DNA of 64,000 nucleotides from Oceanobacillus iheyensis HTE831 (GTDB lineage: Bacteria > Bacillota > Bacilli > Bacillales > Amphibacillaceae). The notes under the pieces were generated by a model, which searched no databases, was not told the DNA's origin, and saw nothing but the letters and a program-made list of their open reading frames with translations. Made by a program: the position numbers and the translations under genes. The stretch is taken from assembly GCF_000011245.1 (NCBI RefSeq), contig NC_004193.1, forward strand, positions 1,404,501-1,468,500. Direction: 5' to 3'. This document shows positions 21,922 through 25,874 of the stretch, piece after piece; the stretch's first letter is position 1; each line of letters starts with the position of its first letter.

Positions 21922-22779
21922 TTAATTTAAATGAGGTTCTAGAATACGCTTGACTTTGTTCATTTTTTCACTACAAGCTTGATAAATAGCTTTTGAAGTG
22001 GGATTATCTGTTGCTAAGGCAAAAAGTTCTAAATCTGCTTGTGATTTTTTTATCTTTGCTAATAGTAAAGCAGATTGATTTGGAGTCGCCACTGCTAGAT
22101 GATCGTCGTAAAGATCCACGTACAATTGACCTTGATGGTCTACTTGTCCTAGGAATACATTTTCTAGTGTGATATTTTGCTTTTCAAGTTCTGTATGAAG
22201 CCATTCTGGATTTAAAGCAGCATTTGCTAATGGTTCTAACATGATATTGCCATCCATAATGACTGTTTGCGGTTCTTTATCAGGCGCTACTGCTATTCCT
22301 AAATCTTTCGCTGTTAAAGGTCGGTTTTCTTTTTTAGGAAGTATATTGAATGTACCAGAAGGCTCTAGTACAGCAAATTCTACATCGGATGCTAAGAAAA
22401 CATTATTATCTCTTAGTTTTTCCATCAATTCATCAGTAGAGTACCCTTCTTTTTTCAAATTATCTTCCATTATTTTTCCATCTTGTATAAATACAGTGCT
22501 TTTTCCCTCTGTAAAATCTCGAACTCGTTTACTTTTTAAGGAGAGCTTTTCCATTCCATAAGGCACGATAAACCAGATAAACATAGCAAGCAGTGCATAA
22601 TAAAAATTAGTACTTGGATCCATGGTATGGACGGCAGCGATTCCTCCTAGCACAATGCCTGTAATGGTCTCAAAAATATTAAATTGTGATATCTGTTTTG
22701 TACCAAGCCACTTTACTAAAAGGAAAAGAATAATAATCAAGGTGAGGGATCGAAATATTACAATTGTCCATTCTGGCAT
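21922..22779 (-). CDS. DUF421-DUF1657 fusion membrane protein (2Duf type)
   Basis: 285 residues. Three N-terminal membrane helices (about 5-23, 33-50, 58-75) and the cytosolic DUF421 domain (to about 210) resemble YetF/YrbG. The last 45 residues (AKIKKSQADLELFALATDNP onwards) are a DUF1657 domain, clearly related to the two free DUF1657 proteins of this operon. In the B. subtilis spoVA2mob element the matching protein, called 2Duf, is credited with most of the extra wet-heat resistance of spores and sits in the spore inner membrane. It is the last gene of the operon here as well. Confidence 0.9.
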   Translation of the reverse strand: MPEWTIVIFRSLTLIIILFLLVKWLGTKQISQFNIFETITGIVLGGIAAVHTMDPSTNFYYALLAMFIWFIVPYGMEKLSLKSKRVRDFTEGKSTVFIQDGKIMEDNLKKEGYSTDELMEKLRDNNVFLASDVEFAVLEPSGTFNILPKKENRPLTAKDLGIAVAPDKEPQTVIMDGNIMLEPLANAALNPEWLHTELEKQNITLENVFLGQVDHQGQLYVDLYDDHLAVATPNQSALLLAKIKKSQADLELFALATDNPTSKAIYQACSEKMNKVKRILEPHLN

Positions 22780-22790
22780 ATGACATCCTC

Positions 22791-22994
22791 CTATGATTTA
22801 TATTGTGGTTCCTCTTTTGTCAATTTTATTACTTGATTGTTCATATCATTTTTTACTTCTTCTAAAAGTATATTTGCTTGTTCAATAGCTGATTGCAATT
22901 CAGTATTTCGAGTGGTCTCATGTAAGGACTCTAAGGCGCTTTCTATACTTTTTATGGAAGCGTAACAGCTTTTTACTTGTGATCCTACAGTCAT
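22791..22994 (-). CDS. DUF1657 protein, second copy
   Basis: 67 residues, all helical. MTVGSQVKSCYASIKSIESA opens with the same MTVG-QVK head as the first copy at 25.5 kb and ends EEPQYKS versus EEPQYRQ. It has no membrane segment. It lies 11 bases before the DUF421-DUF1657 gene and 12 bases after spoVAEb. The same position in spoVA2mob holds a DUF1657 gene. Function unknown; expected in forespore-expressed operons. Confidence 0.88.
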   Translation of the reverse strand: MTVGSQVKSCYASIKSIESALESLHETTRNTELQSAIEQANILLEEVKNDMNNQVIKLTKEEPQYKS

Positions 22995-23006
22995 AAATTA
23001 TAGCTC

Positions 23007-23357
23007 CTATCCTTTAGGTTTAAATATTAATGCTCCAATTACACCAAAAATGATTGCCGCTGAAATACCAGCACTTGTAACTTCAAACATCCCTGTTACT
23101 ACTCCAATTAGTCCATGCTTTTCAGCCTCTTGCATTGCTCCATGCACAAGAGAGTTACCAAAGCTAGTAATAGGAACTGTTGCTCCAGCGCCAGCAAAAT
23201 CAATTAAAGGCTCATATAATCCGATTCCATCTAGAATTGCACCACTAATAACTAAAATAGTCAGCGTATGTGCAGGAGAGAGTTTAAATACATCAAACAT
23301 TATTTGGCCAATCACGCAGATGAGGCCGCCGACCACAAAAGCCCAGAAAAAAATCAT
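23007..23357 (-). CDS. spoVAE: Stage V sporulation protein AE, SpoVAEb type
   Basis: 116 residues with four hydrophobic segments. [21 protein letters not shown] in the centre is the SpoVAC/SpoVAE family motif, shared with SpoVAC upstream. In spores these proteins form the channel that moves dipicolinic acid across the inner membrane. The ATG overlaps the spoVAD stop by four bases (ATGA), indicating translational coupling. Confidence 0.94.
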
Positions 23358-24370
23358 TCGTTATCACTCCCTGATTCAATAGATACTGCATGAGCAATAC
23401 AAGGAATAGGATCTTTTTGATTCACTGATAATGGAGAATGCAGGGACCCAGTCGCTACCATTAAGATACGTTTTAGTTTACCCTCAGCCATTTGTTTTAG
23501 AAAATGTCCGTAAGTTACAATAGCTGAACAGGCGGGACCACTAGCACCAGATAAGACTGGCTGACCTTCTCGATAAATGGTTAAGCCACAATCTACATAT
23601 TGATCAGGATTAATATCGATATTTCTTTCATGCATATAATCTAACGAAACTTCTCTACCAATATGTCCAAGATCTCCCGTAATAATTAAATCATAATAAG
23701 AAGGGTCAATATTCCTATCTTGTAGATGTGCCTCGATCGTATCAGCGGCAGCTGCAGCCATTGCCCCGCCCATATTAAATGGATCGGTCATTCCCATGTC
23801 TACGATTTTTCCAATCGTAGCGGATGTTACATAAGGTCCGTTTCCTTGTTTTGCTACTAATGCACAACCAGCGCCGGTTACTGTCCACTGCGCAGTAGGT
23901 GGTTTTTGTCCGCCATATTCTGTTGGGTAACGAAATTGTTTTTCTGCTGCAGCATTATGACTTGAAGCGCCAGTTAAAATATAATTTGCACCACCAGAAT
24001 TAATAATTGTTGCGGCAAGTGCTAAGCTTTCCATAGAGGTGGCACAAGCACTAAAAACACCTAAGTATGGTGTACCTACTGTTTTAGCAGCAAAACTAGT
24101 AGGGGTGATTTGATTTATTAAATCACCAGCAATAAAAAATTCAACATTTTCTTTTTCGATAGGGGATTTCTTTATCGCTATTTGACAAGCTTCTTCTAGC
24201 ATTTTTTGTTGTGCTTTTTCAAAGGAATCTTGTTTAATCCACATATCTTCGTGTAAAGTGTCAAAGGCTTCTGGAATACTTCCGTTTGCTTCAAAAGGTC
24301 CACCTACAGTTCCAGTTGTTATAATTGATGGTCTATTGATGAACTCCCATGTACGGTGCCCAGTTAACAT
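23354..24370 (-). CDS. spoVAD: Stage V sporulation protein AD
   Basis: 338 residues. [10 protein letters not shown] opens the protein as in all SpoVAD, followed by the thiolase/ketosynthase-like fold: [13 protein letters not shown] around 113, [12 protein letters not shown], and [16 protein letters not shown]. SpoVAD binds dipicolinic acid and is needed to load the spore core. The start ATG shares a base with the spoVAC stop (TAATG). GGGGTGG lies upstream. The gene is co-transcribed with the flanking spore genes. Confidence 0.95.
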
Positions 24371-24849
24371 TAGAATCCACCCCATTGAATAAGAATAGTT
24401 TTAATTAGTGCAACAACAAATGCGGAAAATACACCGTAGACTATGACAGGTCCTGCTAGCTTTAACATATTTCCGCCGACACCTAAGATAAATCCTTCTG
24501 TACGATGTTCAATAGCGGCTGAAATAACCGCATTACCAAATCCAGAAACAGGAACCGCAGAACCAGCGCCAGCAAATTGACCAATTCGATCGTATACACC
24601 AAATCCCGTTAATAACATGGTTATAAAAATCAGTGTTGCAGTCGTAGGATTACCGACTGTTTGTTCTGTAAATTGAAATTGATAAATATAAAATGTAGAA
24701 ATAATTTGTCCAATAAAGCAGATTAACCCGCCAATTAGGAATGCTTTAATACAATTTTTTAGTATCGGGCGTTTAACTTCTCTTTTTTCTTGGAAATCTT
24801 GGTATTGTTGTTGTTCAGGCGGTAAATTCTTCTTTTTGTTATCAGCCAT
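24370..24849 (-). CDS. spoVAC: Stage V sporulation protein AC
   Basis: 159 residues: a charged N-terminus (MADNKKKNLPPEQQ) then four or five membrane helices. FAGAGSAVPVSGFGNAVISA carries the family motif. SpoVAC is the mechanosensitive channel of the spore inner membrane that passes Ca-dipicolinate. I use the ATG after AAAGGGTGAG. A longer reading frame upstream has no ribosome site and would overlap the preceding lipoprotein gene. Confidence 0.95.
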   Translation of the reverse strand: MADNKKKNLPPEQQQYQDFQEKREVKRPILKNCIKAFLIGGLICFIGQIISTFYIYQFQFTEQTVGNPTTATLIFITMLLTGFGVYDRIGQFAGAGSAVPVSGFGNAVISAAIEHRTEGFILGVGGNMLKLAGPVIVYGVFSAFVVALIKTILIQWGGF

Positions 24850-24865
24850 TGCACTCACCCTTTCT

Positions 24866-25330
24866 TCAAGTTTGTTCTCTAGCAAGGTGAATAATTCTAT
24901 CCACTTCTTTATTGATCTGTTTATTGGTAATATCATTTTGTTTAATCTTTTTTTCAATTTCTCTTGTTTCAATTAATATTTTCTTATCTGTAGAAAGCTC
25001 TACATGTTCACCTTTAAATTCTTGTTCTAATAACTTTTGGTACTGTTTTCGTTTTTTGGCTAACATAAAACGTTTGTGATGCTCTATATTAACAGTCACG
25101 AGTAACGTATGCTTCGTATTGACAGCATGTACTTCCGTAACTTCTTCGAATTGAGATAGTAGTTCTTTTGCTTTGTTAGAAGGTTGCTGACGAATAATAT
25201 TAAAATTGGTATTTATTTGTTCGATAGATGGGTTTTTATTAGGATCTTGTGTATTTTGATCCGTTTCCTGGTTACATGCTGTTAATAAAAATATACATAT
25301 AATAGCTATCCATATAATTTTTTTCCTCAT
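24866..25330 (-). CDS. YhcN/YlaJ-family spore lipoprotein
   Basis: 154 residues. The lipoprotein signal MRKKIIWIAIICIFLLTAC has the lipobox Cys at 19. Then an acidic/Asn linker and the YhcN/YlaJ domain follow, with ATVNIEHH-like VTVNIEHHKRF and a basic C-terminal helix. Family members sit in the spore inner membrane. It precedes spoVAC by 16 bases. The same gene occupies this slot in the spoVA2mob operon. GTGAGG is 9 bases before the chosen ATG. Confidence 0.88.
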   Translation of the reverse strand: MRKKIIWIAIICIFLLTACNQETDQNTQDPNKNPSIEQINTNFNIIRQQPSNKAKELLSQFEEVTEVHAVNTKHTLLVTVNIEHHKRFMLAKKRKQYQKLLEQEFKGEHVELSTDKKILIETREIEKKIKQNDITNKQINKEVDRIIHLAREQT

Positions 25331-25515
25331 CTTCAAATACCTCACTTTTTGTATGTAAATGAGATAGGGACAAAAAGTAATAAAACAAAAGACAATCAAA
25401 CAAAAAAGGAAGGAGTAATCATTGATGTGTAACAGTTTTAGTGTAATTGATTCTTCACAAATGGTTGATTATCTTTTGAAATTAACCTTCTATGCTATGT
25501 CCCAATCTCTATATA

Positions 25516-25719
25516 TTATTGACGATATTGCGGTTCTTCTTGTTCGATTTGTTGCATACGTGGCTCCACACTATCTAGAATAGCTTGTGTTTGTTGCGCA
25601 GCTTGCTGATAAATTTGTTGCGCTTGCTTGTTTTCTGTTTGTAAGGCAAATTGTTCAAAGCTAGCTTGTGCGCTTTTTAATCCTGCAATGGTTTGTTTTA
25701 CTTGTGTTCCAACGGTCAT
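25516..25719 (-). CDS. DUF1657 protein, first copy
   Basis: 67 residues; MTVGTQVKQTIAGLKSAQAS, then a Gln-rich helix, ending EQEEPQYRQ. It is the promoter-proximal gene of the seven-gene spore operon, with GATGAGG before the ATG. About 185 bases separate it from the lipoprotein gene, more than the other gaps. I could not pick out a confident sigma-G promoter by eye. Confidence 0.87.
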   Translation of the reverse strand: MTVGTQVKQTIAGLKSAQASFEQFALQTENKQAQQIYQQAAQQTQAILDSVEPRMQQIEQEEPQYRQ

Positions 25720-25874
25720 ATTACCTCATCCTTTCTTTAACAGATATACATATTTATTTTGTAAACACACTCTCTTTTTTATTCTTTTAATACATTTCCA
25801 TTTAATGACAAGAAAAAATAAATGAAACTTTTTACATAGGTAAGTCGTCTAATATAATAGGGAGAGTAGGTAAA

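What the first reader, a model, noticed from the sequence alone, without database searches (positions are those of the whole stretch)
21922..25719. Chromosomal spoVA2mob-type spore heat-resistance operon ending in a 2Duf protein
The sequence shows seven minus-strand genes in the order DUF1657, YhcN/YlaJ lipoprotein, SpoVAC, SpoVAD, SpoVAEb, DUF1657, DUF421-DUF1657, with stop-start overlaps at SpoVAC/SpoVAD (TAATG) and SpoVAD/SpoVAEb (ATGA). As I know it, this is the composition and order of the spoVA2mob operon, which raises spore wet-heat resistance in B. subtilis and is carried there on a Tn1546-like element. Here no transposase, resolvase or element ends are seen around it. It may be an ancestral chromosomal form. 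Inference: spores of this strain may be unusually heat resistant.
Basis: partly seen in the sequence, partly recalled or inferred. Interest (0 to 1): 0.8.

Follow-up and report, generated by a model that had tools for sequence, protein, structure and literature searches.

The report
Spore DPA channel core swapped out
This bacterium and its relatives appear to have lost the standard core of the channel that loads spores with dipicolinic acid and to rely on a distant cousin of it, best known from a mobile heat-resistance element, while keeping part of the old operon.

Summary
In detail: seven minus-strand genes at 21922-25719 (DUF1657, YhcN/YlaJ lipoprotein, SpoVAC, SpoVAD, SpoVAEb, DUF1657, DUF421-DUF1657) match spoVA2mob gene for gene. 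The interpretation changes. This is not an added heat-resistance cassette: it holds the only SpoVAC, SpoVAD and SpoVAEb genes found in a one-contig genome. The canonical sigF-lysA operon survives elsewhere as spoVAA-spoVAB-spoVAF, with spoVAC-D-Eb-Ea missing. SpoVAD falls on the SpoVA2 side of a tree split supported 100/100, in a clade with its own family (99/99); the spoVA2mob copy sits with Bacillus/Peribacillus/Priestia. SpoVAD is on another contig than SpoVAA, or over 380 kb from it, in 28 of 28 genus genomes. At the old site 37 of 38 genera opened in the family lack the core; so do 19 of 19 'split' loci opened in 18 other families. All 40 SpoVA2 loci opened in the family keep lipoprotein-C-D-Eb, the published SpoVA2 tetramer; 14 of 40 lack 2Duf. 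Best reading: SpoVA2 is the sole inner-membrane DPA transporter here, after a gene-precise core replacement, and the 2Duf module is a separable add-on. Unusual heat resistance does not follow. My paper searches found no description of this replacement.

The parts
25755..25784 (-). candidate sigma-G promoter, GAATA-N18-CAAAATA, 65 nt upstream of the first start codon
   Evidence: the pattern occurs in 18 of 54 upstream regions of SpoVA2 operons, in 16 of the 18 at 57-69 nt before the start, against a mean of 0.9 and a maximum of 4 regions in 200 mononucleotide shuffles; the mobile copy has one at -66. The regions are related, so not independent. Pattern only; the consensus is recalled.
25516..25719 (-). 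DUF1657 protein (67 aa), first gene
   Evidence: PF07870, 77.6 bits
24866..25330 (-). SpoVANJ2-type YhcN/YlaJ lipoprotein (154 aa), proposed outer cap of the channel
   Evidence: PF09580, 28.2 and 28.8 bits, cut-off 26.3; lipobox Cys invariant in 34 rows; AlphaFold2 mean pLDDT 86.5, pTM 0.70
24370..24849 (-). SpoVAC, SpoVA2 type (159 aa), channel subunit
   Evidence: PF03862 138.6 bits; TIGR02838; 76% identical to the mobile copy, 53% to the canonical copy of genus g15
23354..24370 (-). SpoVAD, SpoVA2 type (338 aa), cytoplasmic plug
   Evidence: NF009069/PRK12404 600.7 bits, PRK08304 453.5; trees; relatives of known structure 3LMA and 3LM6
23007..23357 (-). SpoVAEb, SpoVA2 type (116 aa), channel subunit
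   Evidence: 85% identical to the mobile copy, 64% to the canonical copy of genus g15
22791..22994 (-). second DUF1657 protein (67 aa)
   Evidence: 48.2 bits
21922..22779 (-). 2Duf: YetF_N + DUF421 + DUF1657 (285 aa)
   Evidence: YetF structure 3C6F matched over residues 82-225

Best explanation
The operon encodes a SpoVA2 complex that is this organism's only inner-membrane dipicolinic acid (DPA) transporter. SpoVAC and SpoVAEb form the channel, SpoVAD plugs it from the core side, and the YhcN/YlaJ lipoprotein caps it from outside; it loads DPA during sporulation and releases it in germination. The canonical SpoVA core (C, D, Eb, and in this lineage also Ea) was lost from the sigF-lysA operon. 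SpoVAA, SpoVAB and SpoVAF remain there and are inferred to serve the substituted core, or germination signalling independent of it. The DUF1657/2Duf genes are a separable accessory module, probably tuning inner-membrane properties and heat resistance. Shown here: gene content, absence of the canonical core, tree position, conserved chromosomal place, purifying selection, constant versus dispensable parts across relatives. Inferred: the biochemistry (from B. cereus group and B. subtilis work), the direction of change (loss), and the cooperation with SpoVAA/AB/AF.
For: Own genome (one contig, 3,630,528 bp): 1 SpoVAD, 2 PF03862 proteins, both in this operon, 1 SpoVAA 442 kb away, no SpoVAEa. The sigF-lysA site reads sigF-[IS]-AA-AB-AF-lysA, with 24 nt between AB and AF. 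Genus: SpoVAD in 28 of 28 genomes (27 with one copy, 1 with two), SpoVAA in 28 of 28, in 9 on the same contig at over 380 kb and in 19 on other contigs; SpoVAEa 0 of 28; DpaA above cut-off 28 of 28. Family: of 41 old-site loci from 38 genera, 1 full operon, 11 AA-AB-Ea-AF, 29 AA-AB-AF. SpoVA2 loci: lipoprotein-C-D-Eb in 40 of 40, 2Duf in 26 of 40. Tree: 20 canonical SpoVAD rows against 58 others, 100/100; window with 14 family rows, 99/99. Selection: dN/dS 0.04-0.08 for AA, AB, AF and 0.008-0.19 for the seven operon genes against the nearest relative. Function: PMC13059800 (abstract, Introduction, four Results sections, Discussion and passages read) shows that SpoVA2 is needed for full DPA import, that the lipoprotein copurifies with C, D and Eb, and that a B. 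cereus SpoVA2 operon replaces the spoVA operon of B. subtilis.
Against: No wet experiment in this organism; DPA import by this operon is inferred from orthologues. The lipoprotein is a marginal Pfam match (28 bits), and Foldseek gave no hit with E <= 0.001; B. subtilis YhcN 7PEG came 38th (E 0.2, TM 0.48 by query and 0.66 by target). That SpoVAA/AB/AF cooperate with the SpoVA2 core is untested; they might act elsewhere. In five genomes of two other families (f40, f12) SpoVAC and SpoVAEb lie apart from SpoVAD; in the two opened, SpoVAD sits with DUF1657 and 2Duf. So the four-gene unit is not universal outside the family.
Confidence: 0.87

Rival explanations
1. One reading: an accessory operon that adds high wet-heat resistance on top of a normal canonical spoVA operon.
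For: Gene order is identical to spoVA2mob, and 2Duf is present. A passage in PMC5376575 cites that knocking out the 2Duf orthologue of the mobile operon severely cut heat resistance.
Against: No canonical C, D or Eb exists in this genome; in the 28 genomes of the genus no SpoVAD lies beside SpoVAA on a contig.
Confidence: 0.04
2. Recent horizontal capture of the mobile operon, loss of its transposon ends, then decay of the native core.
For: Same gene order as the mobile element.
Against: SpoVAD is only 68% and 2Duf 52% identical to the mobile copy. Family SpoVA2 rows with the window form one clade, 97 (SH-aLRT, 41 rows) and 99/99 (15 rows), and the mobile copy lies in another. Chromosomal neighbours are conserved: YwpF gene in 38, TrkH gene in 37 and the ADH gene in 31 of 53 loci examined.
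Confidence: 0.03
3. The split operon is ancestral and the seven-gene canonical operon arose later by insertion of a core between spoVAB and spoVAEa.
For: Counts of changes on the old-site tree (8 for core present/absent) cannot tell gain from loss.
Against: Canonical SpoVADs form one clade, and the SpoVAD of genus g15, the one full operon opened in this family, groups with those of families f36 and f7, the families that also share a side with f1 in the sigF/SpoIIAB/LysA tree. All full operons opened have the core at the same place, so later losses are needed in any case.
Confidence: 0.07
4. spoVAA-spoVAB-spoVAF are dead remnants without function.
For: Their core is gone and, in this strain, an insertion sequence sits upstream. 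Four of the 40 genomes whose SpoVA2 locus was opened have no SpoVAA.
Against: One frame covering at least 85% of each of AA, AB and AF at 59 of 59 core-less loci; dN/dS 0.036, 0.076, 0.037; SpoVAA in 28 of 28 genus genomes. A block just upstream of spoVAA is shared, by eye, with the nearest relative and lies on the gene side of the insertion sequence.
Confidence: 0.06
5. The canonical core is present but missed through assembly or search failure.
For: Many relatives are drafts.
Against: One-contig genome with completeness 100; closed synteny sigF-AA-AB-AF-lysA; searches with three Pfam models agree, each finding B. subtilis among the 14 controls.
Confidence: 0.01

Closest known systems
SpoVA2 (5A2) locus of the Bacillus cereus group (PMC13059800; PMC10126465)
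   Different: There it coexists with a full canonical spoVA1 operon; here the canonical C, D, Eb and Ea genes are gone and SpoVA2 is the only core.
spoVA2mob of Tn1546-like elements (PMC5133452; here pDMB05-2, L248)
   Same: Same gene order; C 76%, D 68%, Eb 85% identical; a sigma-G-like site at nearly the same distance.
   Different: Here no transposase, resolvase or element ends seen; different SpoVAD clade; conserved chromosomal neighbours; not an addition to a canonical operon.
Canonical spoVA operon (spoVAA-F) of B. subtilis
   Same: spoVAA, spoVAB and spoVAF remain between sigF and lysA.
   Different: The core C-D-Eb and Ea are missing from it; the substitute core is 47-64% identical to the canonical one of genus g15.
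Clostridial spoVA loci with DUF1657-2Duf-C-D-Eb
   Same: SpoVAD 58-65% identical to the window; same side of the canonical split.
   Different: In most, 2Duf lies upstream of C; no lipoprotein detected in 25 of 25 with a profile from Bacilli. The clostridial rows were picked by similarity to the window, so they do not stand for all clostridial loci.

Membership tests
SpoVA2 (5A2) DPA transporter | Gene set DUF1657, YhcN/YlaJ lipoprotein, C, D, Eb, DUF1657, 2Duf in that order | tested here: met
SpoVA2 (5A2) DPA transporter | SpoVAD on the spoVA2mob side, not the canonical side, of the tree | tested here: met
   (100/100 split; the mobile copy is the reference, no named B. cereus group row was included); PRK12404 above PRK08304
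SpoVA2 (5A2) DPA transporter | Operon-encoded lipoprotein of the YhcN/YlaJ family (NJ2) | tested here: met
   marginal Pfam score, below the NCBIfam cut-off; structure search weak
SpoVA2 (5A2) DPA transporter | Forespore (sigma-G) expression | tested here: inconclusive
   pattern match only
SpoVA2 (5A2) DPA transporter | C2/D2/Eb2/NJ2 form a complex that imports DPA | not testable with these tools
   shown for B. cereus group proteins in PMC13059800, not here
spoVA2mob | Carried on a Tn1546-like transposon | tested here: not met
   conserved chromosomal neighbours
spoVA2mob | Same lineage as the transposon-borne copy | tested here: not met
   (one transposon-borne copy, L248)
spoVA2mob | Raises spore wet-heat resistance above that of the host without it | not testable with these tools
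   needs mutants
canonical spoVA operon | spoVAA-AB-AC-AD-AEb-AEa-AF contiguous | tested here: not met
canonical spoVA operon | SpoVAD in the canonical clade | tested here: not met

The most novel reading that the evidence does not exclude
SpoVAA-SpoVAB-(SpoVAEa)-SpoVAF is a signalling/gating module that does not care which DPA channel core it serves. In many Bacillales lineages, several times independently, the canonical core was removed gene-precisely and an NJ2-capped SpoVA2 core took over, after a stage with both cores in which either could be lost. The textbook seven-gene spoVA operon is therefore two functional units, and SpoVA2 is an everyday DPA transporter of many spore formers rather than a special heat-resistance device.
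Probability: 0.55. Interest if true: 0.75.

Novelty: new variant of a known kind. Interest (0 to 1): 0.6.

Why it matters
DPA loading underlies spore dormancy, and the seven-gene spoVA operon is usually treated as one unit. A natural, probably recurrent, gene-precise core replacement separates core from accessory subunits without any mutant. It predicts that SpoVAA/AB/AF work with an unlike core, that lipoprotein-C-D-Eb is the minimal unit (40 of 40 loci opened in the family), and that 2Duf/DUF1657 is dispensable for transport (2Duf absent in 14 of 40). It also warns against reading a spoVA2mob-like operon in a genome as a marker of extreme heat resistance, and against surveys that score spoVAC/D/Eb as present without telling the two cores apart.

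Tried and rejected
Heat-resistance cassette beside a canonical operon: rejected, no canonical core. Recent transposon capture: rejected by tree and synteny. Missing core as an assembly artefact: rejected by a one-contig genome and 37 of 38 genera opened. The idea that loci without the lipoprotein carry a change at the Eb residue altered in the published suppressor (PMC13059800): tested and not supported; a different residue there occurs in 4 of 114 sets with the lipoprotein and in 0 of 48 without it (162 of 166 sets gave an Eb protein). Foldseek of the lipoprotein model against PDB: no match with E <= 0.001; YhcN (7PEG) ranked 38th. Sigma-70 promoter and terminator scan of the region: no more promoter-like sites than in shuffles (12 against 17.4) and a terminator-like count near chance (3 against 2.2).

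Rows dropped and limits: the tree used 78 of the 119 SpoVAD rows (seven long or odd rows left out, the rest thinned); of 80 named loci, 31 were given. The profiles were built from named loci L012-L051, mostly of this family, so the 40 loci are not independent of them. The order tally leaves 24 of 130 genomes undetermined (SpoVAD rows not all printed; G041 of genus g15, canonical, is among them) and 8 without SpoVAA; 'split' there includes genomes in which the two genes lie on different contigs. One 'split' genome (G189) had its old site opened but not its SpoVAD locus.
Full report
What is there. Seven genes on the minus strand at 21922-25719 are confirmed. The junctions TAATG (SpoVAC/SpoVAD) and ATGA (SpoVAD/SpoVAEb) are in the sequence. 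The order is identical to that of the operon beside a Tn3-family transposase on B. velezensis plasmid pDMB05-2, which I use as the spoVA2mob reference.

Which organism. The window lies at 1,404,501-1,468,500 of a one-contig genome of 3,630,528 bp. That the genome is O. iheyensis HTE831 is my recall of its size; a paper search on the size did not confirm it.

No canonical core. The own genome has one SpoVAD and two SpoVAC/SpoVAEb-family proteins, both in this operon. SpoVAA is 442 kb away, SpoVAEa is absent. At the canonical site (L100) the order is dacF-spoIIAA-spoIIAB-sigF-[insertion sequence]-spoVAA-spoVAB-spoVAF-lysA, with 24 nt between spoVAB and spoVAF (dacF, spoIIAA, spoIIAB and spoVAF are named by place and recalled order, SpoVAF being a GerA-family match); spoVAC, D, Eb and Ea are missing. 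In the genus, 28 of 28 genomes have SpoVAD (27 one copy, one two) and 28 of 28 SpoVAA; the two lie over 380 kb apart in the 9 genomes that have them on one contig, and on different contigs in the other 19. 0 of 28 have SpoVAEa; 28 of 28 have DpaA above its cut-off.

How far it goes. In 146 genomes of the family, 142 have a SpoVAD match, 131 SpoVAA and 32 SpoVAEa. I opened the canonical site in 41 genomes of 38 genera (of 39 with SpoVAA, of 46 sampled): one genus (g15) has the full operon, 11 loci read AA-AB-Ea-AF, and 29 (four of them from the window's genus) read AA-AB-AF. By position, all ten g15 genomes in the sample have SpoVAD beside SpoVAA. In 130 genomes of the order, 61 have a SpoVAD beside SpoVAA, 37 have SpoVAD only elsewhere or on another contig, 24 could not be decided and 8 lack SpoVAA. 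I opened 19 of the old sites of these 37, in 18 other families: all 19 lack C-D-Eb between AB and AF, 14 keep Ea, 5 do not. The 18 SpoVAD loci that I fetched from these 19 genomes are all nearer the window's SpoVAD than the canonical one. Of the 61 with an adjacent SpoVAD, 32 have a further match and 29 do not, so either core can be absent. At the 59 core-less sites opened, each of AA, AB and AF has one frame covering at least 85% of the window genome's protein, and AB and the next frame are at most 197 nt apart.

Tree. In a careful tree of 78 SpoVAD rows, 20 canonical rows (with B. subtilis 3LM6 and B. licheniformis 3LMA) are split from all 58 others with 100/100 support. The window lies with 14 family rows (99/99). 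The mobile copy lies with Bacillus sp. SD075 and a Peribacillus plasmid (100/95) inside a mostly Bacillus/Priestia group (98/93). A quick tree of 119 rows agrees. On a quick tree of SpoIIAB+SigF+LysA from 81 sites, presence of the core needs at least 8 changes; strongly supported branches force only 3 for the 'full' label, and 41 of 78 inner branches are open, so 'several times' is likely, not proven. The count cannot tell gain from loss.

Vertical and under selection. Neighbours are conserved: YwpF gene in 38, TrkH gene in 37 and the ADH gene in 31 of 53 loci examined, some of which are from other families. Against the nearest relative, dN/dS is 0.036 (AA), 0.076 (AB), 0.037 (AF), 0.045 (D), 0.008 (Eb), 0.098 (C), 0.189 (lipoprotein), 0.049 (2Duf), 0.036 and 0.061 (DUF1657) (stop-to-stop frames, so C and the lipoprotein include some upstream codons).

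Constant and optional parts. With profiles made from named loci L012-L051, 40 of 40 SpoVA2 loci opened in the family hold lipoprotein, C, D and Eb in a row; 26 of 40 have 2Duf (25 with DUF1657; one of these, L218, in two frames), 14 of 40 have neither. The four of these genomes without SpoVAA are all reduced to lipoprotein-C-D-Eb. This matches the tetramer found by experiment in PMC13059800: SpoVA2 is needed for full DPA import in B. anthracis, the lipoprotein NJ2 copurifies with C, D and Eb, and the B. cereus operon substitutes for spoVA in B. subtilis (abstract, Introduction, Results sections on the screen, the complex, the Eb mutant and B. subtilis, Discussion, and passages of others read). 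Outside the family the unit can be broken up: in five genomes of families f40 and f12, SpoVAC and SpoVAEb lie apart from SpoVAD.

Mechanism. Shown here: the genes, their uniqueness, their relationships. Inferred from orthologues: SpoVAC/SpoVAEb channel, SpoVAD plug, lipoprotein cap; DPA in at sporulation, out at germination. In B. subtilis SpoVAA or SpoVAB loss gives premature germination, and SpoVAF with FigP forms an ion channel that speeds germination (PMC11841064, passages read); that they serve the SpoVA2 core here is my inference. 2Duf is a DUF421 protein like YetF and is believed to be the main cause of the extra heat resistance of spoVA2mob spores (PMC10126465, abstract and three sections read); its absence in 14 of 40 loci argues that it is not part of transport.

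Known or new. SpoVA2 loci beside canonical ones are known in the B. cereus group, and 2Duf is known from many Bacilli (PMC10126465, PMC13059800). A 2012 survey lists spoVAC, spoVAD and spoVAEb among genes of all spore formers; the passages I read do not separate the two kinds (PMC3533761). I found no paper that reports loss of the canonical core with retention of spoVAA/AB/AF among the listings. Of those listed I read only the papers named in this report, plus passages of PMC12331253; a term search inside PMC12700454 found nothing. The library lacks most subscription journals and the first spoVA2mob paper, and supplements could not be read.

Verdict. Observation confirmed; interpretation partly supported; a new variant of a known kind. 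The value is not heat resistance but a natural, probably recurrent, exchange of the DPA channel core.

Noticed in passing
L100:8436-9798 (own genome, between sigF and spoVAA): An insertion sequence in two overlapping frames (DUF772 and DDE_Tnp_1_6) lies between sigF and spoVAA here; in the nearest relative (L205) the two frames are 149 nt apart, and a block just upstream of spoVAA shared with it stays on the gene side of the insertion (by eye).
   Followed up: partly
L314, L315 (genomes G236 and G169); also G197, G265, G214: In two families (f40, f12) a SpoVAC-SpoVAEb pair lies apart from SpoVAD; in the two SpoVAD loci opened it sits with DUF1657 and 2Duf. The core itself is split.
   Followed up: partly
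L046, contig JARUXA010000054.1 labelled Sphingomonas sp. PsM26: A 10.6-kb contig carries a whole SpoVA2 operon like that of Priestia flexa (L047); probably contamination of the assembly.
   Followed up: no
CP079755.1, 313382-314382 (plasmid record of Klebsiella grimontii): An unannotated SpoVAD-like reading at 64% identity in a Gram-negative plasmid record; probably foreign sequence in the assembly.
   Followed up: no
L248 (B. velezensis pDMB05-2), L071, L222, L320: At the SpoVAEb position altered in the published suppressor, 110 of 114 lipoprotein-bearing SpoVA2 sets share one residue and four, the mobile copy among them, have another; no link with absence of the lipoprotein.
   Followed up: partly
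nine genomes of the genus: A second DpaA (dipicolinate synthase subunit A) copy above the curated cut-off; the window's genome has one.
   Followed up: no
L348-L350 (family f7): Canonical core present but no SpoVAEa detected by BLAST: Ea may be lost without the core.
   Followed up: no
L218 (genome G042): 2Duf is in two overlapping frames, so it may be broken, with lipoprotein, C, D and Eb frames beside it.
   Followed up: no
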